NCBI RefSeq assembly: GCF_009932555.1
Contig: NZ_BLJO01000011.1
Coordinates: forward strand, 1-64,000
Source: Steroidobacter agaridevorans
GTDB lineage: Bacteria; Pseudomonadota; Gammaproteobacteria; Steroidobacterales; Steroidobacteraceae
DNA length: 64,000 nt
Direction of reading: 5' to 3'
A program made the translations under genes and the position numbers. Positions 26,766 to 45,069 of the stretch are shown piece by piece (within the stretch, counting starts at the first letter, position 1; each line of letters starts with the position of its first letter). The notes beneath the pieces are model-generated. The model was not told the DNA's origin. It searched no databases and saw only the letters and a program-made list of their open reading frames with translations.

Positions 26766-27553
26766 TGATGGCTACGCTCATGCCTGAAGCCCGCCTCATT
26801 CACCTGTTGATCCGCAAGCTCGAAAACTTCGCGGAGCTGACGGAGGAAGAGAAAGACGCCCTGTACGAAGCGGCCGGGCCGGTGCGAGCGTATGGCTCGC
26901 ACGAGGACCTGATCCGTGAAGGCGATCATGCGCACGGCGTCTCCGTGATCGTTTCGGGGTTCGCCTGCCGGCACAAGATGCTGCCCGACGGCCGGCGCCA
27001 GATCATCGGCTACTTCCTGCCGGGCGACATGTGCGATGCGCGTGTGTTCATTCTGAAGAAAATGGACCACACCATCAGCACGCTCGCTCCCTCATCGGTG
27101 ACCACGCTGTCGCGTGAGTCCATTCTGGAGATCACTTCGCGCCATCCGCGTCTGACCCGAGCGTTCTGGTGGAACACCCTGGTGGAAGAAGCGATCGGAC
27201 GCCAATGGCTGGTGAGCATCGGTCAACGCACCGCGTTGGAACGCGTCGCGCACTTGTTCTGCGAAATCTACGTGCGGCTGCAATCGGTCGGGCTCGCGAC
27301 GCCGGAAGGCTGCGAGTTGCCGGTCACGCAGTCCGAGCTGGCGGACACCGTCGCGCTCTCGACTGTGCACGTCAATCGCACGTTGAAAGAGCTGCGCCGG
27401 GTCGGGCTGGTCTCGATGAGCAGCAAGTCGCTGGTCATCCATGACTTCGCCGGCCTGCGCTCGCTGGCCATGTTCGACCCTGGCTATCTGCACCTGGAAG
27501 GCGAAGGCCTGATCAAGGACCGTTACAGCCACGGGCTGTTGAAATCGCTGTGA
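26765..27553 (+). CDS. Crp/Fnr-family transcription regulator
   Basis: 262 residues from the ATG at 26765. A cyclic-nucleotide-binding-like beta-barrel (SHEDLIREGDHAHGVSVIVSGFACRHKMLPDGRRQIIGYFLPGDMCD) is followed by a winged helix with PVTQSELADTVALSTVHVNRTLKELRRVGLV. FNR-type iron-sulfur cysteines are not present in the usual places. It is the third gene of the kinase operon and converges with the methyltransferase gene of the glycoside cluster, with 40 bases of overlap between stop regions. It may control the cluster, but no target site was seen. Confidence 0.88.
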   Translation: MMATLMPEARLIHLLIRKLENFAELTEEEKDALYEAAGPVRAYGSHEDLIREGDHAHGVSVIVSGFACRHKMLPDGRRQIIGYFLPGDMCDARVFILKKMDHTISTLAPSSVTTLSRESILEITSRHPRLTRAFWWNTLVEEAIGRQWLVSIGQRTALERVAHLFCEIYVRLQSVGLATPEGCELPVTQSELADTVALSTVHVNRTLKELRRVGLVSMSSKSLVIHDFAGLRSLAMFDPGYLHLEGEGLIKDRYSHGLLKSL

Positions 27554-28295
27554 TCCGCGCCAGGTCGCGAGTCGATTCCTCCGGCACTCGCACCGGGCCG
27601 CAAACATAGAACTCATGCTCGGGCCGGGCGATCACTTCGAAACCGGCCGAACGTAACAGCGCCTCGACGCAACTGGCATTTGGCACCCACCAGTTGCTGT
27701 CGTCGTCGGCAACTCGATGCTCGACGAAGGCCATCTTGGGCCACGCTTGCTCGAGCATCAGCTCGCGGCGATTCAACGGCACATCCGGCGGCGTCACGTC
27801 GCGCGCAGGGCCGGGCAGGGTCATGCTTTGAAACACCATGAGTCGCTGCGTAGCCCGCCGCACCAGGTCGAGCGCCAGCGTCGGATAGCGCAAGTGATAG
27901 AACACGCCGGTGAACCACACCATGTCGTAGCGCCGCTCCGACCCGAGCAGCCCATAAACATCGCCTTCGACGAACTCGACGCGGTCCTTTAAATCGAATT
28001 CATGCGCAGCCCAACACGCCTGGCGTACATACATCGGTTCGACATCCACCCCGAGCACGCGCGCACCGCGCCTCGCCAGCTCGAAGCTGTAGAACCCGGC
28101 ATTGCAGCCGATATCCAGCACCGACCATCCCGACAGATCGTCCGGGATCGCCGCCGCGACGTGTTGCCATTTGAAACTTGGAAAGTCGCCGAAGGGATGA
28201 TCGGGTGACGTCTGGGTGCCGTCCGGCAAATGCAGATTGTGAAACCACGGCCCCAAGCCCGCGATCTGCTCGCGCACCGAGCTTTGTAACGCCAT
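27513..28295 (-). CDS. SAM-dependent methyltransferase, TIGR04290-like
   Basis: 260 residues from the ATG at 28295, with GAGGGC upstream. It contains the class I methyltransferase motif SVLDIGCNAGFYSFELARRGARVLGVD and EFVEGDVYGLL. The beginning (VREQIAGLGPWFHNLHLPDGTQTSPDHPFGDFPSFKWQ) matches what I know of the TIGR04290 methyltransferases, which recur in an uncharacterised glycosyltransferase cluster. It is the last gene of the leftward operon, ten bases after the CgeB-type gene. It probably methylates a sugar or cyclitol of the cluster product. Confidence 0.85.
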   Translation of the reverse strand: MALQSSVREQIAGLGPWFHNLHLPDGTQTSPDHPFGDFPSFKWQHVAAAIPDDLSGWSVLDIGCNAGFYSFELARRGARVLGVDVEPMYVRQACWAAHEFDLKDRVEFVEGDVYGLLGSERRYDMVWFTGVFYHLRYPTLALDLVRRATQRLMVFQSMTLPGPARDVTPPDVPLNRRELMLEQAWPKMAFVEHRVADDDSNWWVPNASCVEALLRSAGFEVIARPEHEFYVCGPVRVPEESTRDLARITAISTARGCNGP

Positions 28296-28305
28296 CGTCG
28301 AGCCC

Positions 28306-29445
28306 TCAATGCGCAGCGAAAGCACGCTCGCCGGATGTTCCGGCGATCGATGGCAGCGGCTTGCGAACCGCAGACCCACGCGCAGCGCTCAGGTAACTTT
28401 CCAGCTCTTCGGCACGGTGCACGCTGCTGTGTTCGGCACAGATGCGCTCACGCGCGGCAGCGGCCATCTGCTCAGCTTCGGCATCGCTCACGTTCTCGAG
28501 GATTTCCGTTACGTCGCGTGTGGAATCCGCCAGCAGGACTTCCTTGCCCGGCTCCAGCAATTCATCGATGCCGACCCACTCATCCGAAATGATCGGCGTG
28601 CCGCAAGCCGCCGCTTCGAACAAACGCACGCTGGGTGAGTATCCGGCCTTGCGCATATCGGCGCGCGTGAGATTCAAGGTGAATCGCTGCCGGCCGTAGA
28701 ACAGCGCATGCGAGCCGGGAGCCATGTGATCCACGCGCTGTACGTTCTTCGGCCATACCAGATCATCCGGATACTGCGCGCCGACCACGGCAAAGCGCCG
28801 CTTTGGCAAGCGACGCGCAGGCTCGTTCAGTAATGTTTCGAGGGCCGGTTGTCGGTCCTCGCTGTAGGTGCCGAGGTAGCCGAGCTCAATGTCACGATGC
28901 GTGCCGGTGGGCTGATACTGATCGACGTCCACACTGCAATACAACGGGCGCGCCGATCTGGCGCCGAACTCCCGCTCCAGGCGCTCCAGGATCGGGCCGC
29001 CCGTGAAGCTCAACATCAGATCGAACTCTGGAACCTGCGCAGCGCGCAGATATTCGCAGCTGTCATCCTGCAATCGCGCCACCGTCACGGGCGTATCGAT
29101 GTCGTAGAACGCCTTCACGCCGGTGGCGTGATCGAGCACCCAATCGCAGACCTGCCGCCCCTCGTCGACGTAAGAGCCGACGATCACAGCGGCGGCGGCG
29201 CGCAGCCGCGGAGTGTATCTGGCACGCAGCTCATCGACGTCCAAATACAGACGCGACTGGCAGTACGGCAGGATGGGAGCATCGCGATTGCTGGCGTACC
29301 ACGGCTGATCCCGCTCGAGGAACAGAACTTTGTGACCGAGCCGGTGCAGGCCGCGAATCAACGAGCGATAAGTGGATGCGTGCCCGTTGCCCCACGACGA
29401 GGTGATGGACAGGCCGATGAAGATGATTTCGTCAGAGCGCCGCAC
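28306..29445 (-). CDS. CgeB-type glycosyltransferase (paralogue 1)
   Basis: 379 residues from a GTG at 29445, preceded by AGGAGG six bases upstream; the alternative ATG at 29463 lacks this. The protein is a GT-B fold of the CgeB kind, with ITSSWGNGHASTYRSLIRGLHRLGHKVLFLERDQPWYA near the start and SVRLFEAAACGTPIISDEWVGIDELLEPGKEVL in the donor-binding half. The start overlaps the previous gene by 14 bases. It is close in sequence to the third CgeB gene (39040-40188), with shared SSWGNGHA and SYTGG or SFTGG elements. The acceptor is unknown. Confidence 0.85.
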   Translation of the reverse strand: MRRSDEIIFIGLSITSSWGNGHASTYRSLIRGLHRLGHKVLFLERDQPWYASNRDAPILPYCQSRLYLDVDELRARYTPRLRAAAAVIVGSYVDEGRQVCDWVLDHATGVKAFYDIDTPVTVARLQDDSCEYLRAAQVPEFDLMLSFTGGPILERLEREFGARSARPLYCSVDVDQYQPTGTHRDIELGYLGTYSEDRQPALETLLNEPARRLPKRRFAVVGAQYPDDLVWPKNVQRVDHMAPGSHALFYGRQRFTLNLTRADMRKAGYSPSVRLFEAAACGTPIISDEWVGIDELLEPGKEVLLADSTRDVTEILENVSDAEAEQMAAAARERICAEHSSVHRAEELESYLSAARGSAVRKPLPSIAGTSGERAFAAH

Positions 29446-30568
29446 GGTGCACCTCCTCGTCATATCTGGCCGGCACGGCGCGGCGGGATAGCTGCTCCAC
29501 CAGCAATTTCTTTACTTCTATCGCGCGATGCTCATAGGTGTGCTCGCTCAGCAGATGCCGGCGGGCGCGCTCCCCCATGCGCCTCGCCTCGCCTGGAGTG
29601 AGCGCAGGCAAGACGGCCGCAACGTCCTCACCGCTTTCGACACGCACGACCTCCTTCCCAGGCTCGAGAAACTGCTCCAGTCCCTGCCAGGCATCGCAGA
29701 TCAAACAGGCGCCCGCGCCGGCCGCTTCGAACACTCGCGTCGGCGGTGAGTAACCGACCTGCGCCATGCTGTCACGATTGATATTGAGGACCGCGAGCGT
29801 GGAGCAATTGAAAGCGTTGTGATCGCGCGTATAGACGTGACCCACGTAGTCGACGTTGTCGGTCAGCGCCACGTTGCGATCCCAACCCGAGCCGCCCAGC
29901 AGGAATTTCTTATCACGCAGCAAGGCGGCAGGTTTCAGAAAGAACTCGCGCACGCGGGCCTCGCGATCGGGCAGTCGGTTGCCGAGAAATCCCAGCGCGC
30001 CGCTGAATCTCGGGTCCGGTTGCACGGGATGATGGGTCGTCGGATCAAGCGCGTTGTAAATAGGAACGCAGCGGCGCGCCCCAAAGTTCGAATATTCTTC
30101 AACCACGGGCGGTCCGCCGCCGTAGGTCAGCACCAGGTCATAGTTCGGCACTCGAGAACGGAATGGATCCGAGGCATCGGCTCGCATGCGCTGCAACGTA
30201 GCCGGGGCATCGACATCCCAAAACACTGTCAGATTCGAAGCACGCCGTAGCCGCGGCACCTCGGCTTCCAGTTCCTCGTCGAACACACCGACGCCGCTGG
30301 CCTTGACGACGATGTCCGCATCTCGCGCCTGTTCGAGCACGGACTGCAAACCATCGGGCGTGGCGGGATAGATCACCACCTTGGCCCAACTCGGATCGGG
30401 CATGTCCCGGTGCTGCTGACGGCCGAAGGCGTCCGGCTCGTAGAACGTGACATCGAAACCGCAACGATCCAGGGCGCGGATCATGCCGCGGTAATAGGTC
30501 GCCGCACCGTTCCAATAGGCCGACACCAGGCTCGAGCCGAACATGGCCAATGTTACTTTCGCGGTCAT
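29432..30568 (-). CDS. CgeB-type glycosyltransferase (paralogue 2)
   Basis: 378 residues, start overlapping the previous stop as ATGA at 30565-30568. The N-terminal half has YWNGAATYYRGMIRALDRCGFDVTFYEPD and VLTYGGGPPVVEEYSNFGARR; the C-terminal half has GYSPPTRVFEAAGAGACLICDAWQGLEQFLEPGKEVVRV, the acceptor-to-donor hinge and nucleotide-binding part of a CgeB-type GT-B enzyme. It is a cytoplasmic transferase using a nucleotide sugar. It forms with the neighbouring genes a run of glycosyltransferases that should add sugars in sequence. Confidence 0.85.
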   Translation of the reverse strand: MTAKVTLAMFGSSLVSAYWNGAATYYRGMIRALDRCGFDVTFYEPDAFGRQQHRDMPDPSWAKVVIYPATPDGLQSVLEQARDADIVVKASGVGVFDEELEAEVPRLRRASNLTVFWDVDAPATLQRMRADASDPFRSRVPNYDLVLTYGGGPPVVEEYSNFGARRCVPIYNALDPTTHHPVQPDPRFSGALGFLGNRLPDREARVREFFLKPAALLRDKKFLLGGSGWDRNVALTDNVDYVGHVYTRDHNAFNCSTLAVLNINRDSMAQVGYSPPTRVFEAAGAGACLICDAWQGLEQFLEPGKEVVRVESGEDVAAVLPALTPGEARRMGERARRHLLSEHTYEHRAIEVKKLLVEQLSRRAVPARYDEEVHRAAL

Positions 30569-31689
30569 GACAGTCCTCCTGCCGCCGAGCGCGGCAAGGC
30601 AGCCGTCTGCAGCGTCGTCAAAATCTTCAACAGCTCATCGACTCGATGCGCGCAGGAATGCCGGGCTTGAATCGTTTCCAATCCATGCCGCACCAGACTC
30701 GTCGCGAGCTCACGGTCATTGAGAATCGCCCGGAGATGACGCTGCATCTCGTTGCTATTGGCCGCCACCAGGTAATCGACATCCGGCCGGAATAGATTCT
30801 CCGAGTCGAGCCACGGCGCACTGACCAACGGAATGCCGCACGCCAAGGCTTCGAACATGCGGATCGTGGGAATACCGTGCAGTTGGCGAGCGTAGGTCTG
30901 CCGGGGCACATGCACGGTGCAGCGATGACGAGCAAACACTTCCGGCACGCGATGATTCGGCAGCCAGCCTCGATACGCGATTCCGGCTTCGCGTAGCGAC
31001 TGCAGCGCATGCTCGGGATAGCGGACGCCGTGCACCGCTGCCTTCAAGCCCAACCGTCGCGTCGGCTCGATCAGATACTCGCGCAGCTCGGCGCTGCGCT
31101 CGTCATCGCCCCAGTTACCGATCCAGACGAGATCCGCGAGGTCATCGGCAACCGCCAATGGAGCGAAACGTCGCAGGTCGGCAGCTTCGTGCCACACCCA
31201 GCTTTGCGCCGCCCAACCGTGACTTGTGTACTGATCCGCGACCGCCTGACCGAACGCGAGCACGCCGTCGTAGTGACGCAGGTCCAGCGTCCCCATCGCC
31301 GACGCGTCGGTGACGCTGCGATGGTGGGTGTCGTGGAACAGTGCCGTGCAGCCGTGCCGGCTGGCGCTCGCGCCGAGCCGCTCGATCAAGCGTGGATCGT
31401 TCCACTCGTGAACGATGACCACATCGGCTCCCTCCAGCACTGCATCTAGATCCAGAATCGCAGCGTCGAAAAATCTGCTGCTCAGCTCGGGAAACGTCAC
31501 GTAAAAATCGGTGAGCGCGCCCTCGCCTCGCTCGGCGAGCAGATTCGTCAAGCTCCAGCCCGCCTCGGGCTCGTAAACCTCCACCGCATGTCCGCGATAA
31601 AGCAGCTCGCTGACAATGCCACGCAGGAAATGAGCGTTGCCGTGATTCCAATCCGAGATCAGCGAGTGATAGAACAGGACGAAGTTCAT
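30565..31689 (-). CDS. CgeB-like glycosyltransferase
   Basis: 374 residues from the ATG at 31689, which overlaps the upstream stop (ATGA). It starts MNFVLFYHSLISDWNHGNAHFLRGIVSELLYRGHAVEVYEPE and ends like other members of this group (IPTIRMFEALACGIPLVSAPWLDSENLFRPDVDYLV), so it is another GT-B glycosyltransferase of the CgeB kind but more distant from the other two. The frame further upstream (to 31947) is not protein-like. Probably cytoplasmic; the sugar is unknown. Confidence 0.83.
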   Translation of the reverse strand: MNFVLFYHSLISDWNHGNAHFLRGIVSELLYRGHAVEVYEPEAGWSLTNLLAERGEGALTDFYVTFPELSSRFFDAAILDLDAVLEGADVVIVHEWNDPRLIERLGASASRHGCTALFHDTHHRSVTDASAMGTLDLRHYDGVLAFGQAVADQYTSHGWAAQSWVWHEAADLRRFAPLAVADDLADLVWIGNWGDDERSAELREYLIEPTRRLGLKAAVHGVRYPEHALQSLREAGIAYRGWLPNHRVPEVFARHRCTVHVPRQTYARQLHGIPTIRMFEALACGIPLVSAPWLDSENLFRPDVDYLVAANSNEMQRHLRAILNDRELATSLVRHGLETIQARHSCAHRVDELLKILTTLQTAALPRSAAGGLS

Positions 31690-32783
31690 GCGGCGGTTCG
31701 CTCCCCATTCTCGTGCTTGTGAAGTAGCGCTCGATACGTCTCCAGATATTCCGCCGCAGTTGACTCCATGCGGTAGTCCTTGGCCCGCACTCTCGCCGCT
31801 GTTGCCAGCTCTTGTCGGCGCTCTGGATCGGCGAGGAGCGTGTCCAGCTTCGCGCGCAGGCTTCGGGCATCGCGCGGTTCGAAGAACACAGCCGCACCAT
31901 TCCATAGTTCGCGCAGTGTCGGGATGCCGGCGAGCACGAGCACGCATCCGGCGCTCGCCGCTTCGACCACGACCAAGCCGAACGGCTCATAAAGCGCGGG
32001 ATGCACGAATATGCTGGCCCGATGCATCCACTTGTGAACTTCGAGACTTGGCAGCGCGCCGACAGCCCGGACTGCGCATGGCGTGAAAGCCTGACCGTCC
32101 GGCCCTGTGACGCTGCCGATGACGTATGCACTCCACCGCGCGTTCCGAGCAGCATCGTCGAGAACGCACAGGTTCTTCGAAGCATCCCAGGGGCGCCCGC
32201 ACGCCAACACAATGGACTCACGTGAGACATTGCAACTGTAAGCAGGCGGTGCTCGTCCGTTCCTGATAACGCGGGTCGGCGGCGTAAAGGCATAACATGC
32301 AGCGAGCTGCTCGAGAAACGCCGCTGTTGGAGCAACCACGATGTCGGCGCTGTTCAGCCCGGTGGCGACGCGGCCGCGATATTCGTTCCACCGTGCCGGC
32401 GGCGAGCTGCCATACACCGCTTGCCACCAGGTCCATACACACGAGTGCGCCACGCAAACGACGGGTTGTGTCCACGGCAGCGCTGCATGCGAGTAGCCAT
32501 TGAGGTGGATGACATCCACTGCATTCGATGCAGCCAGGTCGAGCAGCCATTCGCCCGCCGCATCGACATCGGCCCAAGGAGCGGCCATCCATTCCAATCG
32601 ATAGTCCGACTCCACGAGTTGTACGTTGCCAAGCGCTGCGGCGGCGTTGCGCTGTTCGCCGCTCGGACGCGGCCCCATGGTCGCCAGCACCACATCGACA
32701 CCGTGTCCTGACAGAGCCGAGCACAGGTCGAGCGCATATGTCCACACGCCGCCCACCGCATCGGCTGTCATCAGGAGCTTCAT
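31686..32783 (-). CDS. GT4-family glycosyltransferase
   Basis: 365 residues from the ATG at 32783, overlapping the preceding stop. The N-terminal half (KLLMTADAVGGVWTYALDLCSALSGHGVDVVLATMG) and the C-terminal half (HPALYEPFGLVVVEAASAGCVLVLAGIPTLRELW, with the E-x7-E retaining signature) are typical of GT4 enzymes, which transfer a sugar from a nucleotide donor with retention. It is translationally coupled on both sides. The second member of a four-transferase run in the leftward operon. Confidence 0.9.
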   Translation of the reverse strand: MKLLMTADAVGGVWTYALDLCSALSGHGVDVVLATMGPRPSGEQRNAAAALGNVQLVESDYRLEWMAAPWADVDAAGEWLLDLAASNAVDVIHLNGYSHAALPWTQPVVCVAHSCVWTWWQAVYGSSPPARWNEYRGRVATGLNSADIVVAPTAAFLEQLAACYAFTPPTRVIRNGRAPPAYSCNVSRESIVLACGRPWDASKNLCVLDDAARNARWSAYVIGSVTGPDGQAFTPCAVRAVGALPSLEVHKWMHRASIFVHPALYEPFGLVVVEAASAGCVLVLAGIPTLRELWNGAAVFFEPRDARSLRAKLDTLLADPERRQELATAARVRAKDYRMESTAAEYLETYRALLHKHENGERTAA

Positions 32784-33826
32784 GCTCGATAGACCTCCTC
32801 GATGAGGGCAGCGCTGCGAACGATGTTCTCGGCTTCGGCATCGAAGCGCTTGCTCACATGCAACTGCCGCAGCCATGCCCGCAGCGCCCGCGTTCCCCAA
32901 TCGTCCCGCGACGTTCCGAGTTGCTCGCGCTCCGTGCCGTGAAATAAATGAACGTCGAAGTCATAGAAGGAGCCATCGACGTTGCGCCATGAAGCACCGC
33001 CGCGCGTGCCCGCGATTTCCATCCGGATTTGCGCCGGCTGGCCGATGTGCGCATACCAGGAGCAACACAGCCGCACGATCGCGCCATTCGCCTGGATGAA
33101 CTCGGCATAAGCGAGGTCCTCCAGCTCGCCGGCGCGGCCTTGCACCGGTTGCCCGTGAGCGAACAATCGGCTGCGCACCCGCTCCGTCGGCGGCATGCCC
33201 TGTACCCACAGCGCCAGATCGAGCAAATGCACGCCGAGGTCCAGCAAACAACCGCCACCGGCAAGTGCGGGACTCTTGCACCAGGACTTGTCAGGTCCGT
33301 ACGCATTGTGGAAAACCGCGCTGATCGCGATCACCTCGCCGATCTCGCCCGACATCAGCCGACGCCGCAACTCGCGCATGCCGGTGATGTAGCGATAGCA
33401 GAAGTCGATGCCGAGCAGACGATCGGCAGCACGGGCCGCCGCTAGCACCCGCTGTACATCGCTTAGCGTGGTCGCGAGCGGCTTCTGGCAGAACACTGCC
33501 AATCCGCGCTCCAGACAAGCGATGGCTTGATTGGCATGTAGACCATTCGGCGTCGCGATCACGACCGCGTCCAGATCTTCATCGAGCAACTCATCGACGT
33601 CCGGACTTACAGAGGCGTCTGGATGAACAGCAGCGGCCGCGCGCAGCCGATCGGCATCGCTATCGACCAGAGCGGCGACTTCGATGGCGCTGCTGTCGGC
33701 GGTCAACGCGTCGAGTCGTTTGCGCCCGATCCATCCCAGGCCGACGAATCCAAGCCGCGGCCGAGCATGAGCAAGTCGCGATGCTGGGATCGCCGATTGG
33801 GTCGGCACTTGCAAGCGCGCGCTCAC
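32780..33826 (-). CDS. Gfo/Idh/MocA-family oxidoreductase
   Basis: 348 residues from a GTG at 33826 that overlaps the upstream stop as GTGA. The N-terminal Rossmann fold (RLGFVGLGWIGRKRLDALTADSS) binds NAD(P), and FCQKPLATT carries the conserved E/QKP loop. The C-terminal half (GGGCLLDLGVHLLDLALWVQG) has the catalytic-site helix. Members oxidise or reduce cyclic polyols and sugars, including inositol. In this cluster, with inositol-phosphate synthase present, a cyclitol or keto-sugar is a reasonable substrate but not proved. Confidence 0.87.
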   Translation of the reverse strand: MSARLQVPTQSAIPASRLAHARPRLGFVGLGWIGRKRLDALTADSSAIEVAALVDSDADRLRAAAAVHPDASVSPDVDELLDEDLDAVVIATPNGLHANQAIACLERGLAVFCQKPLATTLSDVQRVLAAARAADRLLGIDFCYRYITGMRELRRRLMSGEIGEVIAISAVFHNAYGPDKSWCKSPALAGGGCLLDLGVHLLDLALWVQGMPPTERVRSRLFAHGQPVQGRAGELEDLAYAEFIQANGAIVRLCCSWYAHIGQPAQIRMEIAGTRGGASWRNVDGSFYDFDVHLFHGTEREQLGTSRDDWGTRALRAWLRQLHVSKRFDAEAENIVRSAALIEEVYRA

Positions 33827-37155: not shown

Positions 37156-37171
37156 AGCAACAAGCGTGCCG
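37156..37171 (-). promoter_or_regulatory. near-consensus sigma-54 promoter for the leftward operon
   Basis: On the minus strand it reads CGGCACG-CTTG-TTGCT, against the consensus TGGCACG-N4-TTGC(A/T): one mismatch, with GG-N10-GC spacing exact. Transcription would start near 37145, about 50 bases before the GTG at 37092. A sigma-54 activator gene (44038-45069) lies at the far end of the cluster. Confidence 0.75.
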
Positions 37172-37262: not shown

Positions 37263-37274
37263 TCGACGCGTCGA
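37263..37274. promoter_or_regulatory. perfect 12-base palindrome in the divergent control region
   Basis: TCGACGCGTCGA is a perfect palindrome about 85 bases upstream of the TTG start at 37357. It may be an operator of the rightward operon; chance is possible at this length and GC content. Confidence 0.35.
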
Positions 37275-37356
37275 GCGGCGCGCTTCTCGTCGATCCGAAG
37301 CCTTGCATGATTCGTGCATCACCGTTCGCGACAGGCACACCTCGCGGGAGACGGCA

Positions 37357-38496
37357 TTGAACGCTGAGACAGTGAACGTTGGCATCGTCGGCGCCGGCAA
37401 CTGCGCATCTTCCTTCGTGCAAGGCTTGCACTACTACCACGATGCCGACGACGACGCGGTCATCCCCGGTTTGATGCACGCCAGAGTGGGGCCTTACCAC
37501 GTGCGTGACATCCGAATCACCTCGGCATTCGACATCACCGCACCCAAAGTCGGCAAAGATCTGTCGGAAGCGTTGCTCGCTCCGCCCAACAACACGCGAG
37601 TATTCGCGCCGGTGCCTGCGCTGGGCGTCAAGGTCGCGCGAGGCCGCACGCTCGACGGCATCGGCATCTATCTCGAAGACGAGCTGATCGAGTCGGGTGC
37701 CGCGGAAGCGGATGTTGTGAAGGTCCTGCGGGACAGCGGCACGCAGATTCTGGTCTCCTATCTTCCGGTGGGCTCGCAGCGTGCGACCGAATGGTATGCG
37801 TTGCGCGCCCTCGAAGCCGGCTGCGCGTTCGTCAATTGCATTCCAGTGTTCATCGCTTCGGATGCCGACTGGCGGCGCCGTTTCGAAGTGGCGCGCCTGC
37901 CGCTGGTCGGCGATGACATCAAGAGCCAGGTCGGCGCGACCATCGTGCATCGGGCGCTGGCCAATCTGTTCCGTGAGCGCGGCGTGAGTCTGGATCATAC
38001 ATACCAGCTCAACTTCGGCGGCAACGCCGATTTCAAGAACATGCTGGAACGGGAGCGACTGGTCTCGAAGAAGCTGTCCAAGACGCGCTCGGTCACCAGT
38101 CAGATCGACGTGGCGCCGGGCAACATCCATGTCGGCCCGAGCGATCATGTCGAGTGGCTGAGCGACAGGAAGTGGGCCTACATCCGCATGGAAGGCACGG
38201 CATTCGGCGGCTCGCCGCTGAATATCGAGTTGAAGCTCGAAGTGTGGGACTCGCCGAACTCCGCGGGCGTGGTGATCGACGCCGTACGCTGTGCGCAGCT
38301 CGCGCTCGATCGTCGCGTAGGCGGCGCACTGACAGGGCCGTCGAGCTATTTCATGAAATCGCCGCCTCAGCAGTTCACCGATCACGTCGCGCGCCAGCTG
38401 ACGCTCGACTTCATCGCCGGCAAGGCCACTCAGGATCAACCTCATGACCAACGACCTCGTGTTCGTGCGCCACGCCACGTGCGAGCGCATGGATGA
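37357..38496 (+). CDS. myo-inositol-1-phosphate synthase (actinobacterial type)
   Basis: 379 residues from a TTG at 37357, with GGGAG eight bases upstream. It converts glucose 6-phosphate to inositol 3-phosphate with NAD as a bound cofactor. [18 protein letters not shown] is the NAD-binding loop; [15 protein letters not shown] and [26 protein letters not shown] and [20 protein letters not shown] match the Mycobacterium Ino1 class that I know. First gene of the rightward operon. Its end overlaps the next gene by 53 bases in another frame. Rare in gammaproteobacteria, so horizontal transfer is likely. Confidence 0.92.
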
Positions 38497-39043
38497 GATG
38501 TTGCTGGGACGCACGGTCGACGCGCCGCTCGCCGCCGTCGGAGTCCGGGAAGCAGAAGCCATGGCAAGCATGCTCGCTCCAGCGCCGGAAGCCTTGCTCG
38601 TGGTGAGCCCGCGCCGTCGCGCTCAACAAACTGCGGCAGCCATTGCCGCTCGCAGTCAGTGCGAGCTCGTGACGGCGTGCGACATTGACGAACTGGACTT
38701 TGGGCACTGGTCAGGACAAACATTCGCCGAGCTTGCCCAAGATCCAGCCTGGCGGCGATGGAACGAGCAGCGCGACAGCGCAGCTACCCCAGCGGGCGAG
38801 CGGATCAGGGACGTGCAGACACGAGTGCTGCGCCATCTGCATCGACTGCGTGAGGCTTTTCCCGGTCGGCCGATGATCCTGGTGACGCACGCGGAAGTGA
38901 TTCGTGCCGCGCTCCTGTACTGGCTGCAAGCGCCGGTCGATGTATATCGGCGACTGGCGATCAGTCCTGCGTCGATCAGCCGCGTGAGCCTGAACGACTG
39001 GGGCCCACGCATCGATGCCATCAACCAGCGGGCATCTCTATGA
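38444..39043 (+). CDS. histidine phosphatase (phosphoglycerate-mutase-like), possible inositol phosphatase
   Basis: 199 residues. [25 protein letters not shown] carries the RHA/G phosphohistidine motif, and [17 protein letters not shown] the second histidine, with glutamate in [10 protein letters not shown]. These enzymes remove phosphate from small molecules. Next to inositol-phosphate synthase, it is a candidate for making free inositol or for processing another phosphate intermediate; this is inference from position only. It overlaps the neighbour on both sides (53 bases before; ATGA after). Confidence 0.88.
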
Positions 39044-40188
39044 AAATTGCGATCTTCGGTTTGACCATCAGCTCCTCGTGGGGCAACGGCCACGCCACGC
39101 TGTGGCGTGGACTCGGCAAGGCGTTGGCGTCTCTCGGACACGAGTTCGTGTTCTTCGAACGCGACGTGCCGTACTACGCCGCGAGTCGCGACTGGCCTTC
39201 GCTGCCGCCGTCATTGGGGGATAGCGAGCTCGTGCTGTACTCGGACTGGTCCACCATCGAGGGCCGTGTCCGCCGCGAGCTTGCTGAGTGTGACACGGCG
39301 ATCGTCTCGTCGTATTGCTTCGACGCGCAGGCCGCGACCGACACGATCCTCGACGCTCAGCATCCGCTCGCGGTGTTCTACGACCTCGACACGCCGATCA
39401 CGCTGGATGCCTTGCGCTCCGGCAAGCAAGTTCCTTACATCCCCTGGCGCGGTCTCGGCGATTTCGATCTGGTGCTGAGCTACACCGGTGGCGCTGCGCT
39501 GGAAGCACTACGAAGCGATCTGTGCGCGCATCACGTCCGCGCGTTGTATGGCCATGTCGATCCCGACGTTCATCACCCGGTCGCTCCGGTGGAACGATAT
39601 CGAGCGATGTTGTCGTGGCTGGGCACCTACTCCGCCGACCGGCAGGTCATGCTCGAAGAATTGTTTGTCGCGCCGGCGCGGCTGCGGCCTCGGGACAAGT
39701 TCCTGATAGGCGGCGCGCAGTATCCGGAGCACTTTCCCTGGAGCAACAACGTCTATTTCGTCTATCACCTGCCGCCGCAGGAGCATGCGGCATTCTTCTC
39801 GTCGTCGCGCCTGACGTTGAATGTCACTCGCGAGCCGATGGCTCGCATGGGCTGGTGCCCGTCGGGTCGATTGTTCGAGGCCGCTGCCTGCGGAGCCGCG
39901 GTGCTCTCCGACGAATGGTGCGGCCTGGATGACTTCTACACACCCGGCGAGCAGGTGCTGGTCGCCCGCACCGCCGACGACACGCTGACGGCGCTGGATA
40001 TGAGCGATGCGAAGCTACAGGCGATCGGACGCGCCGCGCGCGAACGTACTTTGGATGAGCACACCAGCCTGCGTCGCGCGAAGCAGCTGATTGATTACCT
40101 GGAGGAGGTTCGCTCGCCGTTTCATCCGCGAGCCATGCAGGGATCGGCACAAAATTATGACCAGACTTTCGACGCAGCGAGGCCATGA
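39040..40188 (+). CDS. CgeB-type glycosyltransferase (paralogue 3)
   Basis: 382 residues, starting on the previous stop (ATGA). It has the same plan as paralogue 1: ISSSWGNGHATLWRGLGKALASLGHEFVFFERDVPYYA at the start and LFEAAACGAAVLSDEWCGLDDFYTPGEQVL near the end. A proline-histidine-glutamate rich turn (YHLPPQEHAAFFSSSRLTLNVTREPMARMGW) lies between. It is a cytoplasmic GT-B enzyme. Being on the opposite operon from its close relative suggests duplication within the cluster. Confidence 0.87.
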   Translation: MKIAIFGLTISSSWGNGHATLWRGLGKALASLGHEFVFFERDVPYYAASRDWPSLPPSLGDSELVLYSDWSTIEGRVRRELAECDTAIVSSYCFDAQAATDTILDAQHPLAVFYDLDTPITLDALRSGKQVPYIPWRGLGDFDLVLSYTGGAALEALRSDLCAHHVRALYGHVDPDVHHPVAPVERYRAMLSWLGTYSADRQVMLEELFVAPARLRPRDKFLIGGAQYPEHFPWSNNVYFVYHLPPQEHAAFFSSSRLTLNVTREPMARMGWCPSGRLFEAAACGAAVLSDEWCGLDDFYTPGEQVLVARTADDTLTALDMSDAKLQAIGRAARERTLDEHTSLRRAKQLIDYLEEVRSPFHPRAMQGSAQNYDQTFDAARP

Positions 40189-40982
40189 CCATGTGGGGCA
40201 TCGTTCCTGCAGCCGGCCGTGGCAGTCGTATCCAACCGTTAGCCTTCTCCAAGGAGCTGCTGCCGGTGGGCTCGCGCATGTTGGACGACACGCAGCGGCC
40301 TTGTGCGGTCAGCGAATATTTGCTGGAACGGATGATCCGTGGCGGCGCCGATAAGATCTGTTTCGTCATCGGCGCGGGCAAGTCCGACATTCTGGAGTAC
40401 TTCGGCGGCCAGTTCGGCGGCGCGGACCTCGCTTACGTCGTGCAGCCCCAACCTGCCGGGCTATGCGATGCCGTGTTCCGTGCGCGTGCCCTGGTGGCGC
40501 CCGACGATACTGTCGCCATCGGCTTGCCGGACACCATCTGGTTTCCAGATCACGGCCTCGCCGCGTTGCCTGACGACCAGCTGTCGTTCCTGCTGTTTCC
40601 AGTGGAGCGACCGGAGCAATTCGACGCCGTCATGCTGGCGGACGATCAATCGCACGTGGTCGAGATCCGGGTCAAACAACAGGATCCCGGCACGCACTGG
40701 ATCTGGGGTGCGTTCAAGATGCCCGGCGCCGTTCTGCACGAACTGCATGAGCTCTGGCAGCGACGCAATCGAAGCGATGAGTTCTTTGGAACCTTGATCA
40801 ATGCCTACCTGGCGGACGGCGGCGAAGCGCTCGGCATCAAGGCCGGCGAGGCTTATGTCGATGTCGGCACATTGCAAGGCTATCGCGCCGCCATGCTGAT
40901 GCTCGGCGAAACGCCGCCAGGCTCCGCCGCCATGCCGACGCCAGTCGCCCGTGAATCAGCTCGTATCGAGGTGCGGACATGA
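40185..40982 (+). CDS. sugar nucleotidyltransferase (GT-A fold, NTP_transferase)
   Basis: 265 residues, starting on the previous stop (ATGA). The start GIVPAAGRGSRIQPLAFSKELLPVG is the nucleotide-binding signature; VIGAGKSDILEYFGGQFGGADLAYVVQPQPAGLCDAV holds the sugar-phosphate side, and AYVDVGTLQGYRAAM is typical of glucose-1-phosphate nucleotidyltransferases. It joins a nucleotide to a sugar 1-phosphate to make donors for the glycosyltransferases. Phosphopentomutase downstream may supply a pentose 1-phosphate, but that link is speculative. Confidence 0.88.
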   Translation: MTMWGIVPAAGRGSRIQPLAFSKELLPVGSRMLDDTQRPCAVSEYLLERMIRGGADKICFVIGAGKSDILEYFGGQFGGADLAYVVQPQPAGLCDAVFRARALVAPDDTVAIGLPDTIWFPDHGLAALPDDQLSFLLFPVERPEQFDAVMLADDQSHVVEIRVKQQDPGTHWIWGAFKMPGAVLHELHELWQRRNRSDEFFGTLINAYLADGGEALGIKAGEAYVDVGTLQGYRAAMLMLGETPPGSAAMPTPVARESARIEVRT

Positions 40983-41911
40983 TCGAAGCCGCGATGATCT
41001 GGAATGAGCCGAATAACAAATCGCATTGGGATCCGGAGGTCGATCCCGGTTGGCCACAGTTCGCACAGATGGCGTGCCTCGCGGGTCAGGCGATTCGCTC
41101 AGCGAACCCTCGCTTGCCCCGCGTGCTCGGCGGCATGTCGCCGATCGATCCGGCCTTTCTGCAGAATCTCGCCGGACGCGGCGTACTCGAGCATGTCGAT
41201 GTCGTCGCGGTGCACGGCTTTCCGCTCGACTGGAATCTCTGGTGCATCGATGAATGGCCGCAGAAGATCGAGGAAATTCGCGCGGCAACGTCCCTGCCCG
41301 TCTGGGTCACCGAGGTCGGCGTTTCGAGCTTCGGGGCCGAAGAGGTGCAAGCATGGGGCGTGGATCGAACTGCCGCGCTACTCATAGGCAAGGCACCGCG
41401 CATTCAGTGGTACAGCCTCTACGATCTACCCCGCGCCTGGCCCGCAACGACGCGCCATCGGGAAGCCGAAGGCTCGTCCTATTACAGACATTTCCATATG
41501 GGCCTGCTGCGCGAGGACGGCACGCCGAAGCAGGCGTTGGAAAGATTCGGGCAGCACACGCCTGCGATGGGCATCTGTCAGTGGTTCCATTTCGAAGATC
41601 CTCGGCTCGATGACGCAGTGACCTGGCTGAAACGTCTCGGCGTGCGTCATCTGCGCACCGGTCTGTCATGGGCCGACAGCTTCCGCCCGAACGCGCTCGC
41701 CTGGTTCGATCGGCAGATGCAGGCGCTGCAGGACTTCGATGTCACCGTGACTTTCTGCTTCACGCCCGAGCACCTGGGCATCCTGCCCCATCACACCAGC
41801 GCGCCGCGCGAGCCGGAGCGATTCGCCGAGTTCTGCGCATCGATGATCGAGCGTTACGCCCCCGTCATGGCGAGCGATGCACGTGTAACCAACAGAGTGG
41901 CCGTCGCATGA
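40979..41911 (+). CDS. clan-A glycosidase-like protein, apparently circularly permuted
   Basis: 310 residues, starting on the previous stop. It opens at IWNEPN (acid/base Glu10) and has the nucleophile pattern WVTEVGVSS (Glu112), the second half of a GH39/GH5-like barrel. From residue 193 ([20 protein letters not shown], then [18 protein letters not shown] and ending [16 protein letters not shown] at 281-296) the sequence reads like the first three strands of such a barrel, which normally precede NEP. The halves therefore look swapped. The ribosome and operon context support this start. It may cut or transfer a glycoside; beta-xylosidase-like is only a family-level guess. Confidence 0.75.
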
Positions 41912-43143
41912 CCCGCGCATTCATCATCGTGCTGGACTCGCTGGGGGTGGGCGGCGCCCCCGATGCCGATCGCTACGGCGATGTTGGCTCCGACACCTTG
42001 GGTCACATCGCGCAACGATGTGCCGGCGGCGATGCCGATCGCAGTGGTATCAGACATGGGCCTTTGGACCTGCCCAATCTCGCCGCCCTCGGTCTGGGCG
42101 AGTGTTGTCGTGCAGCCACCGGCATCGAGGCGCCGGGCCTTGAAATATCCGCCTGGCGAATCGGTCATGCGGGCGCCGCCGCCGAAGTCTCGACAGGCAA
42201 AGACTCGCAGTCCGGACATTGGGAGATCGCCGGCAGCCCGGTCGATTTCGAATGGGCTTATTTCCCGCACACCGAGCCGTGCTTCCCACGGTCGCTGATC
42301 GACAAACTATGCGAGCGCGGCGGCTTCGACGGCGTGCTCGGGAATAAACATGCGTCCGGCACACAGATCATCGACGAGTTGGGCGACGAGCATGTGCGCA
42401 CCGGCAGGCCGATCTGTTACACCTCCGCCGACAGCGTGTTTCAAATCGCCGCTCACGAACAGCGCTTCGGACTGGAGCGCCTGTATTGGACCTGCAAGAT
42501 TGCGCGCGAACTGCTCGACGAGATGCGCGTCGGCAGAGTGATCGCGCGACCGTTCGTGACGACCCACGATGGTTATCGGCGAACTTCGAATCGTCGCGAC
42601 TATGGAGTGCCGCCGCCGTTCCCCACGCTGTTGAGTCGTGCGCAAGGCGCCCGGCGCGAAGTGGTCTCGGTCGGGAAGATCGGCGACCTGTTCTGCCATA
42701 CGGCGACCGGCCGTGAGCTGAAAGGCAAGGACAACGACGCGGTGTTCGATCAAGCCCTCGATGCGATGAGACATCTTGGGCAGGGCGGGCTGATGTTCGT
42801 CAATCTCGTCGACTTCGACACCTTGTACGGTCACCGGCGCGACGTACCGGGTTACGCAGCGGCGTTGGAAGCGTTCGATGCACGCCTGCCCGAATTCCTG
42901 CAGCAGCTCGATGACGGCGACCTCGCCATCATCACCGGCGATCATGGTTGCGATCCGACCTGGAGCGGCTCGGATCACACTCGCGAATGTGTGCCGGTGC
43001 TCGCGTTCGGCCCGAACTTCAAGCACGGCGGCGTGCAGCGTCATGCCTTGGGCCGACGCGCCAGCTTCGCGGACATGGGCGCGACGGTCGCCCGGCATCT
43101 CGGGCTGGCAGCCGGCGATCATGGCCATTCCTTCTTATGGTAG
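41908..43143 (+). CDS. phosphopentomutase-like enzyme
   Basis: 411 residues, starting on the previous stop (ATGA). It belongs to the DeoB group of the alkaline-phosphatase superfamily: [30 protein letters not shown] (Asp10 metal site), [10 protein letters not shown] at 98-106 and [24 protein letters not shown] near the end. The place of the phosphorylated Thr of characterised enzymes (KDT) reads KDS, Ser100. Normally it interconverts ribose 1- and 5-phosphate. Its place inside a sugar cluster suggests a pentose-phosphate step for the product. Confidence 0.88.
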
Positions 43144-43149
43144 CCGGCC

Positions 43150-44037
43150 GTGAACACCTGGAACGAAGCCATGAGCCGAGGCGATTTCGGTTCAGCCTGG
43201 GCAATCAGCGACGCCGTCCTGGAAGAGCGCGTCCGGCGCGGCGAGATCTGTAGCCACCTGCCCAGGCATCAGCAATTCGTCTGGCATGGCGAGCGGCTGG
43301 CGGGCCGACGCGTCTTCGTCCGCTGTTATCACGGACTCGGCGACACGCTGCAATTCGTGCGTCTGCTCGCCCATCCGCGACTGCGTGCTGCCGAACTCAC
43401 GCTCTGGGTGCAGCCCGCGTTGATCAAGCTGCTGCAAACGGTGCGCGGCATCGATCGGATCCTGCCGCTGCACGAAGGCGATCCGAGTCTCGATTACGAT
43501 GTGGACATCGAGATCATGGAACTGCCGCATGCATTGCGGCTGGACGTGGACGAGCTCCCCGGCCCCATGCCTTATATATATGTACCCGGCTCCGCGCCGA
43601 AGCGGGCGTCGCTGCGCCGGCGCATCGGCGTGTGCTGGTCGGCCGGTGAATGGGATCCGAAACGATCGCTGAGCGCGACCGAGCTGCGTCAATGGGCGAA
43701 GTTGAGCGATGTGCGCTGGTTCAGCCTGCAATTTCCACCGGCGACCTGCGCGCTGCCGGCTGCCTCGATCGCTTCTCGAGATATCGTGGAAATGGCCGCC
43801 CGCATGCAACTGCTCGATCTGATCATCACCGTGGATACGATGACTGCGCATCTGGCCGGCGCACTCGGGCTGCCAGTCTGGCTGCTGCTGCCTCATGCCC
43901 CCGATTGGCGCTGGATGCTCGAGCGCGACGATTCGCCGTGGTATCCGACGATGCGCTTGTTTCGTCAGACCAGCGCCGGCGACTGGACCACCGTCATCGA
44001 ACAGGTGCATCAGGAGCTGGCGCAGCCGCTCCACTGA
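43150..44037 (+). CDS. GT9-like glycosyltransferase
   Basis: 295 residues from a GTG at 43150, six bases after the phosphopentomutase stop. It lacks the N-terminal tetratricopeptide repeats of many relatives and holds RRVFVRCYHGLGDTLQFVRLLAHPRL, then IGVCWSAGEW and a C-terminal ITVDTMTAHLAGALGLPVWLLLPHAPDWRWMLERDDSPWYPTMRLFRQ, the ADP-heptose-glycosyltransferase-like donor site. It is the last gene of the rightward operon and meets the convergent activator gene stop to stop. Probably transfers a sugar in the cytoplasm. Confidence 0.82.
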   Translation: MNTWNEAMSRGDFGSAWAISDAVLEERVRRGEICSHLPRHQQFVWHGERLAGRRVFVRCYHGLGDTLQFVRLLAHPRLRAAELTLWVQPALIKLLQTVRGIDRILPLHEGDPSLDYDVDIEIMELPHALRLDVDELPGPMPYIYVPGSAPKRASLRRRIGVCWSAGEWDPKRSLSATELRQWAKLSDVRWFSLQFPPATCALPAASIASRDIVEMAARMQLLDLIITVDTMTAHLAGALGLPVWLLLPHAPDWRWMLERDDSPWYPTMRLFRQTSAGDWTTVIEQVHQELAQPLH

Positions 44038-45069
44038 TCAATCGAGCGCGCGATACTCGTTGAGCTTGTTATAAAGCGTCTTGACGCTGATGCCGAGCAC
44101 GGCAGCGGTCCGCGTCTTGTTTCCCGAACAGCGTCGCAACGTTTCCTTGATCACCACGCGCTCGATGGCGGAGAGCGACATTCCTTGGCGGAAAGTCACA
44201 GCGCAGTCCGCCGTTACGCCGGGTTCGGCGATATCGGCGCCGTATTCCGACGCGCCTCGCAGATCGACCTCGTCGTCGGCGAGAATGAACGCGCGTTGCA
44301 CGGTGTTGTAGAGCTCACGAACGTTGCCGGGCCAGCTGTGCTCCTGCAGATATCGCATCGAATCGACGGAGAAGCCCTTGTTCGAGCCTTCGGCTTCGTT
44401 GAGACGATCCAGAAAACATTGCGCCAGCAAATACACGTCCTCGCCACGCCGGCGCAGTGGCGGGATGTGCAGGTGGAATACTGCGAGCCGATATAACAAA
44501 TCGGCCCGGAACCGGTTCTCGGCCAGCGCCTGATTGGTGGCCGCGACTACTCTGGCTTGCAGCGGAATATCTCGCTCGCCACCCACTCGATAGAAGCGTC
44601 GCGATTCGAGCGCACGCAACAGCTTCACTTGCATCTCGGGCGGCATTTCGCCGGCCTCGTCCAGAAACAACGTGCCACGGCCGGCCCGTTCGAAATATCC
44701 TGCTTGCGAGCGGACCGCTCCAGTGAAACTGCCGCGCTCGTAACCGAACAGCTCGGCTTCCACCAAGGTCGCGGGAATGGCTCCGCAGTTCACAGCGACG
44801 AACGGCTCTTCGCGACCGGCGCTCAGAGAATGTATGGTCTCCGCGACCAACTCTTTGCCGGTGCCGCTCTCTCCCGTGAGCAGCACGCTGACGCCGGTAG
44901 GCGCAACTCGCTGCAAGCGATGAAACAACTCCGTCATCAGCGCGCATTCGCCGAGCAAACGGCCCAACCCTCGGCGGCGTAGCGTGCCCTTCGATCCACA
45001 CTGCGCGTTGCCGGCCAGAAGCGATCGAGGCCCGGACCAGTCATCGGCAGCGGGAAGATCAATGCTCAC
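44038..45069 (-). CDS. sigma-54-dependent transcriptional activator without a sensor domain
   Basis: 343 residues from a GTG at 45069 (AGGTG upstream); an alternative ATG at 45153 adds 28 unconserved residues and has no ribosome binding site. The AAA+ core has Walker A GESGTGKE, the sigma-54-contact loop GSFTGA (usual GAFTGA), Walker B LFLDEAGEMPP and the arginine finger region. A Fis-type helix-turn-helix ends the protein (CSGNKTRTAAVLGISVKTLYNKLNEY). With only about 40 residues before the core, it has no receiver, GAF or PAS domain. It is the natural candidate to act at the sigma-54 promoter at 37156-37171. Confidence 0.9.
   Translation of the reverse strand: MSIDLPAADDWSGPRSLLAGNAQCGSKGTLRRRGLGRLLGECALMTELFHRLQRVAPTGVSVLLTGESGTGKELVAETIHSLSAGREEPFVAVNCGAIPATLVEAELFGYERGSFTGAVRSQAGYFERAGRGTLFLDEAGEMPPEMQVKLLRALESRRFYRVGGERDIPLQARVVAATNQALAENRFRADLLYRLAVFHLHIPPLRRRGEDVYLLAQCFLDRLNEAEGSNKGFSVDSMRYLQEHSWPGNVRELYNTVQRAFILADDEVDLRGASEYGADIAEPGVTADCAVTFRQGMSLSAIERVVIKETLRRCSGNKTRTAAVLGISVKTLYNKLNEYRALD

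What the first reader, a model, noticed from the sequence alone, without database searches (positions are those of the whole stretch)
27513..45069. Divergent, translationally coupled cluster for an unknown inositol-linked glycoside, with its own sigma-54 control
Fifteen enzyme genes in two divergent operons carry inositol-phosphate synthesis, phosphate removal, nucleotide-sugar supply and epimerisation, two oxidoreductases, six glycosyltransferase-like proteins, a methyltransferase, a phosphopentomutase and a glycosidase-like protein. Most junctions are 4-base ATGA or GTGA overlaps, which signals a fixed stoichiometry. No transporter, flippase or polymerase is present, so the product may be a soluble or later-exported glycoside rather than a long polymer. 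Neighbours are stress-type genes. I know TIGR04290-type clusters with similar gene sets exist in other proteobacteria, but no product that I can name.
Basis: partly seen in the sequence, partly recalled or inferred. Interest (0 to 1): 0.8.

Follow-up and report, generated by a model that had tools for sequence, protein, structure and literature searches.

The report
Inositol-linked oligosaccharide gene cassette, product unknown
Two back-to-back operons of enzyme genes, shared by scattered and distantly related bacteria, look set to build a small sugar compound on inositol, and one of the enzymes is a sugar-cutting-type protein whose two halves have swapped order.

Summary
In detail: sixteen enzyme-like genes in two divergent, tightly packed operons (4-base overlaps at 9 of 14 junctions), with a sigma-54 activator gene at one end. 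The inositol reading is partly supported. In 398 Pseudomonadota genomes the inositol synthase occurs in 12 of 14 genomes with TIGR04290 and in 21 of 384 without it. Five genomes carry the core but no detected inositol synthase, so inositol is an exchangeable module, not the core.

The core is two sugar-nucleotide epimerases, a GT4, three CgeB-type transferases and the TIGR04290 methyltransferase. (1) The "glycosidase" N is a PslG-like GH-A barrel in circularly permuted order, in 23 of 23 such copies. N-type proteins occur in exactly the 14 cassette genomes. The permuted form goes with an inositol synthase. The unpermuted form on its own, usually fused to epimerase H, occurs where none was found. 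(2) The Zn-dehydrogenase and Gfo/Idh pair is replaced in 10 of 31 regions by one B12-binding radical SAM protein (TIGR04295), never both. (3) H is a CDP-tyvelose-type C2-epimerase with catalytic residues kept. Best reading: a cytosolic pathway to a soluble, methylated hetero-oligosaccharide on inositol. The product is unidentified.

The parts
27513..28295 (-). A: TIGR04290 family SAM-dependent methyltransferase (core)
   Evidence: TIGR04290 317 bits, cut-off 300; start ATG 28295 chosen
28306..29463 (-). B: CgeB-type glycosyltransferase (core)
   Evidence: PF13524 133 bits; in 30 of 31 regions
29432..30568 (-). C: CgeB-type glycosyltransferase (core)
   Evidence: PF13524 130 bits; in 30 of 31 regions
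30565..31689 (-). D: CgeB-type glycosyltransferase (core)
   Evidence: PF13524 119 bits; 4-base overlap with E
31686..32783 (-). E: GT4-type glycosyltransferase (core)
   Evidence: PF13439 and PF00534; 4-base overlap with F
32780..33826 (-). F: Gfo/Idh/MocA oxidoreductase; with G replaced by TIGR04295 in 10 of 31 regions
   Evidence: PF01408; IolG model 110 bits, below its cut-off; best PDB match 1,5-anhydro-D-fructose reductase; GTGA overlap with G
33823..34800 (-). G: zinc-binding dehydrogenase
   Evidence: PF00107 and PF08240; Tdh and IolM models far below cut-off
34805..35908 (-). H: CDP-tyvelose 2-epimerase-type SDR, inferred NDP-sugar C2-epimerase (core)
   Evidence: 286 bits to 9rl0, 271 to 1orr, next 128 bits; catalytic residues kept
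35905..37092 (-). I: GalE-like NAD-dependent sugar-nucleotide epimerase (core)
   Evidence: PF01370 172 bits; best PDB 6dnt, 4zrm
37157..37171 (-). sigma-54-type -24/-12 site CGGCACGCTTGTTGC before the I-to-A operon
   Evidence: joint best of the window by my own weighting; inside the longest invariant block of the intergenic region in three relatives
37357..38496 (+). J: inositol-3-phosphate synthase (INO1); start TTG at 37303 or 37357
   Evidence: TIGR03450 503 bits; 464 bits to inositol-3-phosphate synthase 1gr0
38444..39043 (+). K: histidine-phosphatase-family protein, inferred inositol phosphatase
   Evidence: PF00300 149 bits; in all 20 regions with J, and 2 more
39040..40188 (+). L: CgeB-type glycosyltransferase
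   Evidence: PF13524 128 bits; in the same 13 of 31 regions as M
40185..40982 (+). M: nucleotidyltransferase (NDP-sugar supply)
   Evidence: PF00483 35 bits; in the same 13 of 31 regions as L
40979..41911 (+). N: circularly permuted PslG-like GH-A barrel, both catalytic Glu motifs kept (WNEPN, WVTEVG)
   Evidence: PslG parts match in swapped order; swapped against unpermuted relatives in 23 of 23 copies; model a barrel
41908..43143 (+). O: phosphopentomutase
   Evidence: TIGR01696 450 bits, cut-off 341; in 6 of 31 regions, all of which have L and M
43150..44037 (+). P: distant GT9-like protein
   Evidence: PF01075 E 0.003, below cut-off; no PDB match at E 1; in 11 of 31 regions
44038..45153 (-). 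Q: sigma-54-dependent activator without receiver domain
   Evidence: PF00158 204 bits, PF02954; at the cluster in G400, G471, Peristeroidobacter and X. sacchari

Best explanation
The cassette is a cytosolic pathway that assembles a small, O-methylated hetero-oligosaccharide; in the version seen here it is built on myo-inositol. Inferred steps: J makes inositol-3-phosphate from glucose-6-phosphate and K removes the phosphate. H (C2-epimerase) and I (GalE-like) supply sugar nucleotides, M with O supplies one more, probably a pentose, and UDP-xylose comes from an enzyme encoded elsewhere in the genome. Soluble transferases E, D, C, B, then L and P, add sugars one at a time. G plus F invert or oxidise one position, a step that other lineages give to a single B12-binding radical SAM enzyme. 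A methylates. N, a retaining-glycosidase barrel in permuted order, trims or transfers sugars in the cytosol. A sigma-54 promoter and the activator Q switch on the core operon. Shown here: gene content, conservation, co-occurrence, the permutation (by sequence), the catalytic residues of H, and a promoter-like site. Inferred: every reaction, the order of steps, the acceptor, solubility, the action of Q and any protective role.
For: The core recurs across Pseudomonadota, Bacteroidota and Verrucomicrobiota. INO1 is in 12 of 14 cassette genomes against 21 of 384 others, Fisher p 1e-12, not corrected for relatedness. A divergent INO1 lies beside the cassette in G401. J aligns over 351 residues with a solved INO1. 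H keeps the TNK segment, Tyr, Lys and Gln of the characterised C2-epimerase. UDP-xylose synthase is in 21 of 31 regions. N-type proteins occur in exactly the 14 cassette genomes and in 0 of 384 others. No convincing membrane segment in the cluster's proteins. Sigma-54-type site.
Against: No product or phenotype is known and no paper was found. All 5 searched genomes with only the unpermuted N lack a detected INO1, so inositol cannot be the universal acceptor. No acceptor was tested for any transferase. A polysaccharide pyruvyltransferase beside 5 of 31 regions and the likeness of N to PslG also fit a surface glycan. J is below the TIGR03450 cut-off. K belongs to a broad phosphatase family whose best PDB match is a phosphoserine phosphatase, so its substrate is a guess. 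INO1 is also present in 21 genomes without the cassette.
Confidence: 0.5

Rival explanations
1. The cassette makes a repeat unit or side branch for a cell-surface glycan (lipopolysaccharide or exopolysaccharide). Polymerase, flippase and export are supplied by other loci, and N plays the part of PslG in such a system.
For: The only PDB sequence match of N is PslG, of the Psl exopolysaccharide locus (recalled); a polysaccharide pyruvyltransferase and a FrhB-like protein sit beside 5 of 31 regions; P has a weak heptosyltransferase-family match; the outer modules vary as in surface glycans.
Against: No flippase, polymerase, lipid-phosphate transferase or convincing membrane segment in the window's cluster; N shows no signal peptide by eye, and its unpermuted form is fused to the NAD enzyme H in 7 of 8 cases; a soluble inositol synthase in the operon is unexpected for such a unit.
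Confidence: 0.3
2. Inositol made by J and K is not the sugar acceptor but is converted by G and F to another cyclitol that is used or excreted; the glycan genes are a separate pathway in the same regulon.
For: G and F have distant matches to inositol enzymes, IolM 75 bits and IolG 110 bits, both far below cut-off; J and G are neighbours in G131 and G283, and in P. yeei with DUF1003 between them.
Against: G and F are also present where no INO1 was found (G265, Pontibacter, Christiangramia), and G315 has the radical SAM replacement without INO1, so their substrate cannot depend on inositol synthesis; their PDB relatives act on varied sugars.
Confidence: 0.1
3. An antibiotic-like aminocyclitol glycoside.
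For: An inositol synthase, a cyclitol-type dehydrogenase, a methyltransferase and several transferases occur together, as in aminocyclitol antibiotics (recalled).
Against: No aminotransferase and no export gene among the cluster genes scanned; the cassette core is kept over several phyla.
Confidence: 0.03

Closest known systems
TIGR04290 and TIGR04295 (B12_rSAM_oligo), hypothetical equivalogs of NCBIfam
   Same: The window holds a TIGR04290 protein over cut-off; sister clusters hold TIGR04295 in place of G and F. The model name ending 'oligo' suggests that curators had tied the family to an oligosaccharide locus (inference from the name).
   Different: These are names of single protein families without a known product; the swap of TIGR04295 for G+F, the inositol module and the permuted N were not found described in the paper searches made.
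PslG (GH39-like glycosidase, PDB 4zn2)
   Same: N matches both parts of the PslG barrel, one of them only weakly, and keeps two catalytic-Glu motifs.
   Different: The order of the parts is swapped; N has no signal peptide by eye; no export machinery lies in the cluster.
CDP-tyvelose 2-epimerase (TaTyvE, PDB 9rl0)
   Same: H aligns over nearly its whole length at 286 bits and keeps Thr-Asn-Lys, Tyr, Lys and Gln.
   Different: Met85 of the VAM segment is Val in H; no 4,6-dehydratase equivalog over cut-off lies in the cluster, so the nucleotide and sugar are unknown.
Mycothiol-type INO1 (TIGR03450) with MshA
   Same: J is the same type of enzyme as 1gr0.
   Different: J is below the TIGR03450 cut-off. 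E only distantly resembles MshA (36 bits, cut-off 462.5), and no other mycothiol model appeared in the scans.

Membership tests
TIGR04290 cassette | TIGR04290 methyltransferase over the curated cut-off | tested here: met
   317 bits against 300
TIGR04290 cassette | Core genes I, H, E, D, C, B with the methyltransferase | tested here: met
   All in the window; in the 29 regions left after setting aside two partial ones, I, E, D, C, B and A are in 29 and H in 28
Inositol-3-phosphate synthase, mycothiol equivalog TIGR03450 | Score over the curated cut-off of 638 | tested here: not met
   503 bits; an INO1 homologue (464 bits to 1gr0) but not filed in that equivalog
CDP-tyvelose 2-epimerase family | TNK segment, catalytic Tyr and Lys, Gln205 | tested here: met
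   Alignment to 9rl0 read against the residues named in PMC13098431
CDP-tyvelose 2-epimerase family | C2 epimerisation of a CDP-sugar | not testable with these tools
   needs the purified enzyme
PslG-like GH39 glycosidase | Acid/base and nucleophile Glu motifs | tested here: met
   NEPN at residue 9 in 23 of 23 copies; W[IVL][TS]E.G in 22 of 23, and the 23rd, G131, reads WATEVG
PslG-like GH39 glycosidase | Linear order of barrel strands 1 to 8 | tested here: not met
   Starts before strand 4, ends after strand 3
PslG-like GH39 glycosidase | Glycoside hydrolysis | not testable with these tools
   needs an assay
Sigma-54-dependent operon | -24/-12 element before the operon, kept in relatives | tested here: met
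   CGGCACGCTTGTTGC invariant in window, Peristeroidobacter and G471; TGGCACGCGATTTGC before the X. sacchari operon; a poorer CGGCATGGTTGTTGC in G400
Sigma-54-dependent operon | Loss of expression without RpoN or Q | not testable with these tools
   no expression data
Exopolysaccharide or capsule locus | Flippase, polymerase or export protein in the locus | tested here: not met
   None among the cluster genes scanned

The most novel reading that the evidence does not exclude
N is a cytosolic, circularly permuted GH-A enzyme that has become a dedicated synthetic transglycosidase, joining or remodelling the finished oligosaccharide on inositol. The pathway exists in two interchangeable forms: an inositol form with the permuted enzyme (J, K, N) and a non-inositol form with the unpermuted barrel, usually fused to the C2-epimerase. 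In both forms one redox step can be done either by two dehydrogenases or by a B12-binding radical SAM enzyme. This would be a new class of bacterial inositol oligosaccharide and a natural permuted clan-A glycosidase with a biosynthetic job.
Probability: 0.17. Interest if true: 0.82.

Novelty: new variant of a known kind. Interest (0 to 1): 0.62.

Why it matters
A pathway core kept from Steroidobacter and Sinorhizobium to Pontibacter and a Verrucomicrobiota genome must make something useful, yet no product was found named. The cassette sits on pSymB of the laboratory species Sinorhizobium meliloti, so the product could be found by deletion and metabolite comparison. The permuted barrel is a natural experiment in protein folding, and the repeated exchange of two dehydrogenases for a radical SAM enzyme limits what that step can be, which would help assign a family (TIGR04295) of unknown function.

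Tried and rejected
Fixed stoichiometry from overlaps: not tested; 4-base overlaps are common in bacterial operons (recalled). Mycothiol-like thiol: set aside, no other mycothiol model in the scans. Aminocyclitol antibiotic: set aside, no aminotransferase. One N form strictly replacing the other: not so, Rufibacter and Sabulibacter hold both. Parsimony on a 29-region tree (midpoint root, Rufibacter and Sabulibacter counted as permuted, the Verrucomicrobiota region counted as G/F) gives at least 5 changes between G+F and TIGR04295 (shuffles mean 8.5, minimum 5) and 6 for unpermuted-only N (shuffles mean 5.6, minimum 3, so no clustering on the tree); three nodes are weak (0.19, 0.26, 0.35). I use this only to say that exchange was repeated. 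Literature: TIGR04290, Rta_06860 and TIGR04295 are in no paper of the library. S. meliloti locus tags for the cluster, SMb20238 to SMb20253, were inferred by counting genes between SMb20231 and SMb20268; 13 of these 16 were searched and gave nothing; the one hit concerns SMb20231, outside the cluster. CgeB/inositol/desiccation and INO1/phosphopentomutase/CgeB gave nothing relevant in the listings. Circular permutation with GH39/TIM barrel gave 4 papers, seen as a listing only, none about this by title and abstract start. A search for ndiA and RpoE2 in S. meliloti did not bear on the cluster. The model of P failed (pLDDT 37.5) and was not used. The model of N had two sequences in its alignment (pLDDT 66.2, pTM 0.74); Foldseek's first matches are TIM barrels, a GH5 enzyme at rank 4 with a query TM-score of 0.40, so it supports a barrel and no more. 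The survey centred on Pontibacter found the cassette only there (1 of 296).

Errors of mine that I corrected: the ORF pick took wrong frames in places and was replaced by tblastn. The 'INO1b' query was a wrong-frame peptide; with the right frame (438 residues) it matches G401 in full and otherwise only J-type genes weakly, so the G401 result stands. The count of the nucleophile motif missed G131 through too narrow a pattern.


Full report
Where it is. The window lies in an 8.0 Mb genome. The closest named relative found is Peristeroidobacter agariperforans (A 92% identical; INO1 98%), so the source belongs near Steroidobacter. The cluster runs from 27513 to 45153.

Genes. Minus operon from its promoter: I (GalE-like epimerase), H (tyvelose-type C2-epimerase), G (zinc dehydrogenase), F (Gfo/Idh/MocA), E (GT4), D, C, B (CgeB-type transferases), A (TIGR04290 methyltransferase). 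Plus operon: J (INO1), K (histidine phosphatase), L (CgeB-type), M (nucleotidyltransferase), N (GH-A-like), O (phosphopentomutase), P (weak GT9). Q, a sigma-54 activator without a receiver domain, converges on P. Nine of 14 junctions are 4-base overlaps.

Spread. TIGR04290 occurs in 14 of 398 Pseudomonadota genomes, the window's own included, in 5 of 100 genomes drawn from the same family, and in 1 of 296 genomes of the phylum of Pontibacter, that one being the centre of the search. A protein search found 130 plasmid records, 98 of them Sinorhizobium or Rhizobium, others Roseomonas, Azospirillum, Paracoccus, Bradyrhizobium, Sphingobium and one Xanthomonas. I compared 31 regions, the window included. 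Two are partial: G493 ends with its contig, and Ramli_b is a second Ramlibacter locus with only L, M and A.

Core and modules. In the other 29 regions, I, E, D, C, B and A are in all 29 and H in 28 (none found in Azospirillum). Around this core, modules come and go. (a) Redox: G+F in 19 of 31 regions and TIGR04295 in 10, never together; the Verrucomicrobiota region has G alone, Ramli_b neither. TIGR04295 sits between H (in Azospirillum I) and E, the place of G and F in the window; in other G+F clusters (for example S. meliloti, P. yeei, G131) that pair lies elsewhere. TIGR04295 was confirmed by profile on three examples at 682 to 709 bits, cut-off 400; the other seven by tblastn. (b) Inositol: J in 20 of 31, K in these 20 and in Rufibacter and Sabulibacter. 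(c) L and M: the same 13 of 31; O in 6 of these and nowhere else. (d) A pyruvyltransferase with a FrhB-like protein beside 5 of 31. UDP-xylose synthase (the S. meliloti copy scores 367 bits to human-type UXS1) is in 21 of 31, one of them only 45% identical (Christiangramia), but not in the window; the window's genome has a 56% identical homologue elsewhere.

N is circularly permuted. PslG, the only PDB match, aligns with N in two pieces in swapped order: N 3-190 to PslG 132-328 (25.6 bits) and N 201-298 to PslG 26-133 (4.0 bits, too weak alone). Relatives inside the cassette make the case: against the unpermuted N of Pontibacter, window N gives two pieces of 113 and 68 bits in swapped order, while N rotated in the script gives one piece of 163 bits over 307 residues. 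All 23 permuted copies show the swap against at least 5 of 8 unpermuted copies. In all 23 the match begins with the same stretch before the acid/base motif (M/V-I-x5-WNEPNNKSH); in 6 of 23, the window included, an in-frame stop lies within nine codons upstream, so in these no front half can be missing. In the others the frame is open further up, and some have alternative starts a few residues to some dozens upstream. The acid/base motif is in 23 of 23 and the nucleophile Glu motif in 23 of 23, one of them as WATEVG. The two-sequence model is a barrel whose first strand is at residues 2-8 (pLDDT 66.2, pTM 0.74); Foldseek's first matches are TIM barrels. Of the 8 unpermuted copies, those of X. 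sacchari and G265 were read without their first strands; in X. sacchari the front lies in another frame.

N belongs to the cassette. In the 398 genomes, N-type proteins (E 1e-10 or better) are in the 14 TIGR04290 genomes and in none of the other 384. Of those 14, 12 have the permuted form and INO1; G265 and G315 have only the unpermuted form and no INO1. Over the 31 regions, 23 have permuted N. Of these, 20 have J in the cluster; G401 has a divergent INO1 about 100 bases past A on the same contig (E 9e-31 to PF01658, 21% identical to J over 157 residues); Rufibacter and Sabulibacter have INO1 genes outside the cluster, not matched by J. Six have only unpermuted N: five genomes without INO1 by two searches (G265, G315, Pontibacter, Christiangramia, Verrucomicrobiota; the last two are metagenome assemblies), and X. 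sacchari, of which only the plasmid was seen. The two remaining regions are the partial ones. The unpermuted N is fused in front of H in 7 of 8 cases. Rufibacter and Sabulibacter carry both forms, so the link is of permuted N to INO1 and not a strict either-or. S. meliloti (permuted, INO1) and G265 (unpermuted, none) are sisters on the tree with full support, so the switch happens between relatives. INO1 is not specific to the cassette: 21 of 384 other genomes have it.

H. It scores 286 bits against TaTyvE (9rl0) and 271 against 1orr, against 128 for the next relative. Passages of the TaTyvE paper (PMC13098431, passages read) name Thr124-Asn125-Lys126, Tyr164, Lys168, the Val-Ala-Met segment and Gln205; H keeps all but that Met, which is Val. 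Passages of PMC7851689 say that the T. atlanticus enzyme accepts CDP-, UDP-, TDP-, GDP- and ADP-glucose, so the nucleotide cannot be told from sequence.

Control. By a simple weighting of my own, the joint best sigma-54-type sequence of the window (22.5 of 24.5, tied with one at 633) lies about 65 bases before I on its strand; 23 sites in the window score 20 or more, so the score alone is weak. It sits in the longest invariant block of the divergent region in window, Peristeroidobacter and G471, and a perfect consensus precedes the X. sacchari operon. No comparable site was found facing J.

What it does. See best explanation. The inositol acceptor rests on co-occurrence, not on a reaction. A soluble product rests on the absence of membrane parts. 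A stress role is suggested only by neighbours: a HWE kinase, a receiver and a Crp-like regulator at 25201-27553, and DUF1003 beside 4 of 31 regions. Host sources listed for plasmid records include soil, roots, nodules and human skin. The review of glycosyl-inositols (PMC11907402, passages read) names mycothiol and mycobacterial lipoglycans among bacterial ones; I saw no compound there that fits.

Novelty. The families exist in NCBIfam as hypothetical equivalogs. In the open-access library searched I found nothing about the cassette or about a permuted GH39/PslG-type barrel; most subscription papers are not in that library. That glucansucrases (GH70) are permuted relatives of GH13 is recalled. 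I class it as a new variant of a known kind.

Noticed in passing
window 45582-48745: A BluB (5,6-dimethylbenzimidazole synthase, TIGR02476 256 bits) and a TonB receptor whose best model is a B12 receptor, far below cut-off, lie beside the cluster, while sister clusters use a B12-binding radical SAM protein. Possibly coincidence.
   Followed up: no
L089 11332-13230, L015 907-2883: Unpermuted N is fused in front of the C2-epimerase H in 7 of 8 cases, a PslG-like barrel plus SDR fusion.
   Followed up: partly
L125 16101-17849: A 582-residue protein without Pfam match is kept beside the cassette in 9 of 31 regions; by eye it has a phosphoribosyltransferase-like and a kinase-like stretch.
   Followed up: no
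L121 15654 to L122: Ramlibacter alkalitolerans has a second locus where only L, M and a TIGR04290 protein were found, so these three may travel alone.
   Followed up: no
L124 2914-4230: G401 has a divergent INO1 directly after the cassette, an apparent replacement of J.
   Followed up: partly
L012 6096-9763: Rufibacter carries a carboxylesterase, a 3-keto-disaccharide hydrolase domain protein and an extra methyltransferase between B and A.
   Followed up: no
window 25201-27553: HWE histidine kinase, response regulator receiver and Crp-like regulator directly left of the cluster.
   Followed up: no
L089 11106-11500: In X. sacchari strain R1 the front part of the unpermuted N reads in a different frame from the rest: a frameshift or a sequencing error.
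   Followed up: no
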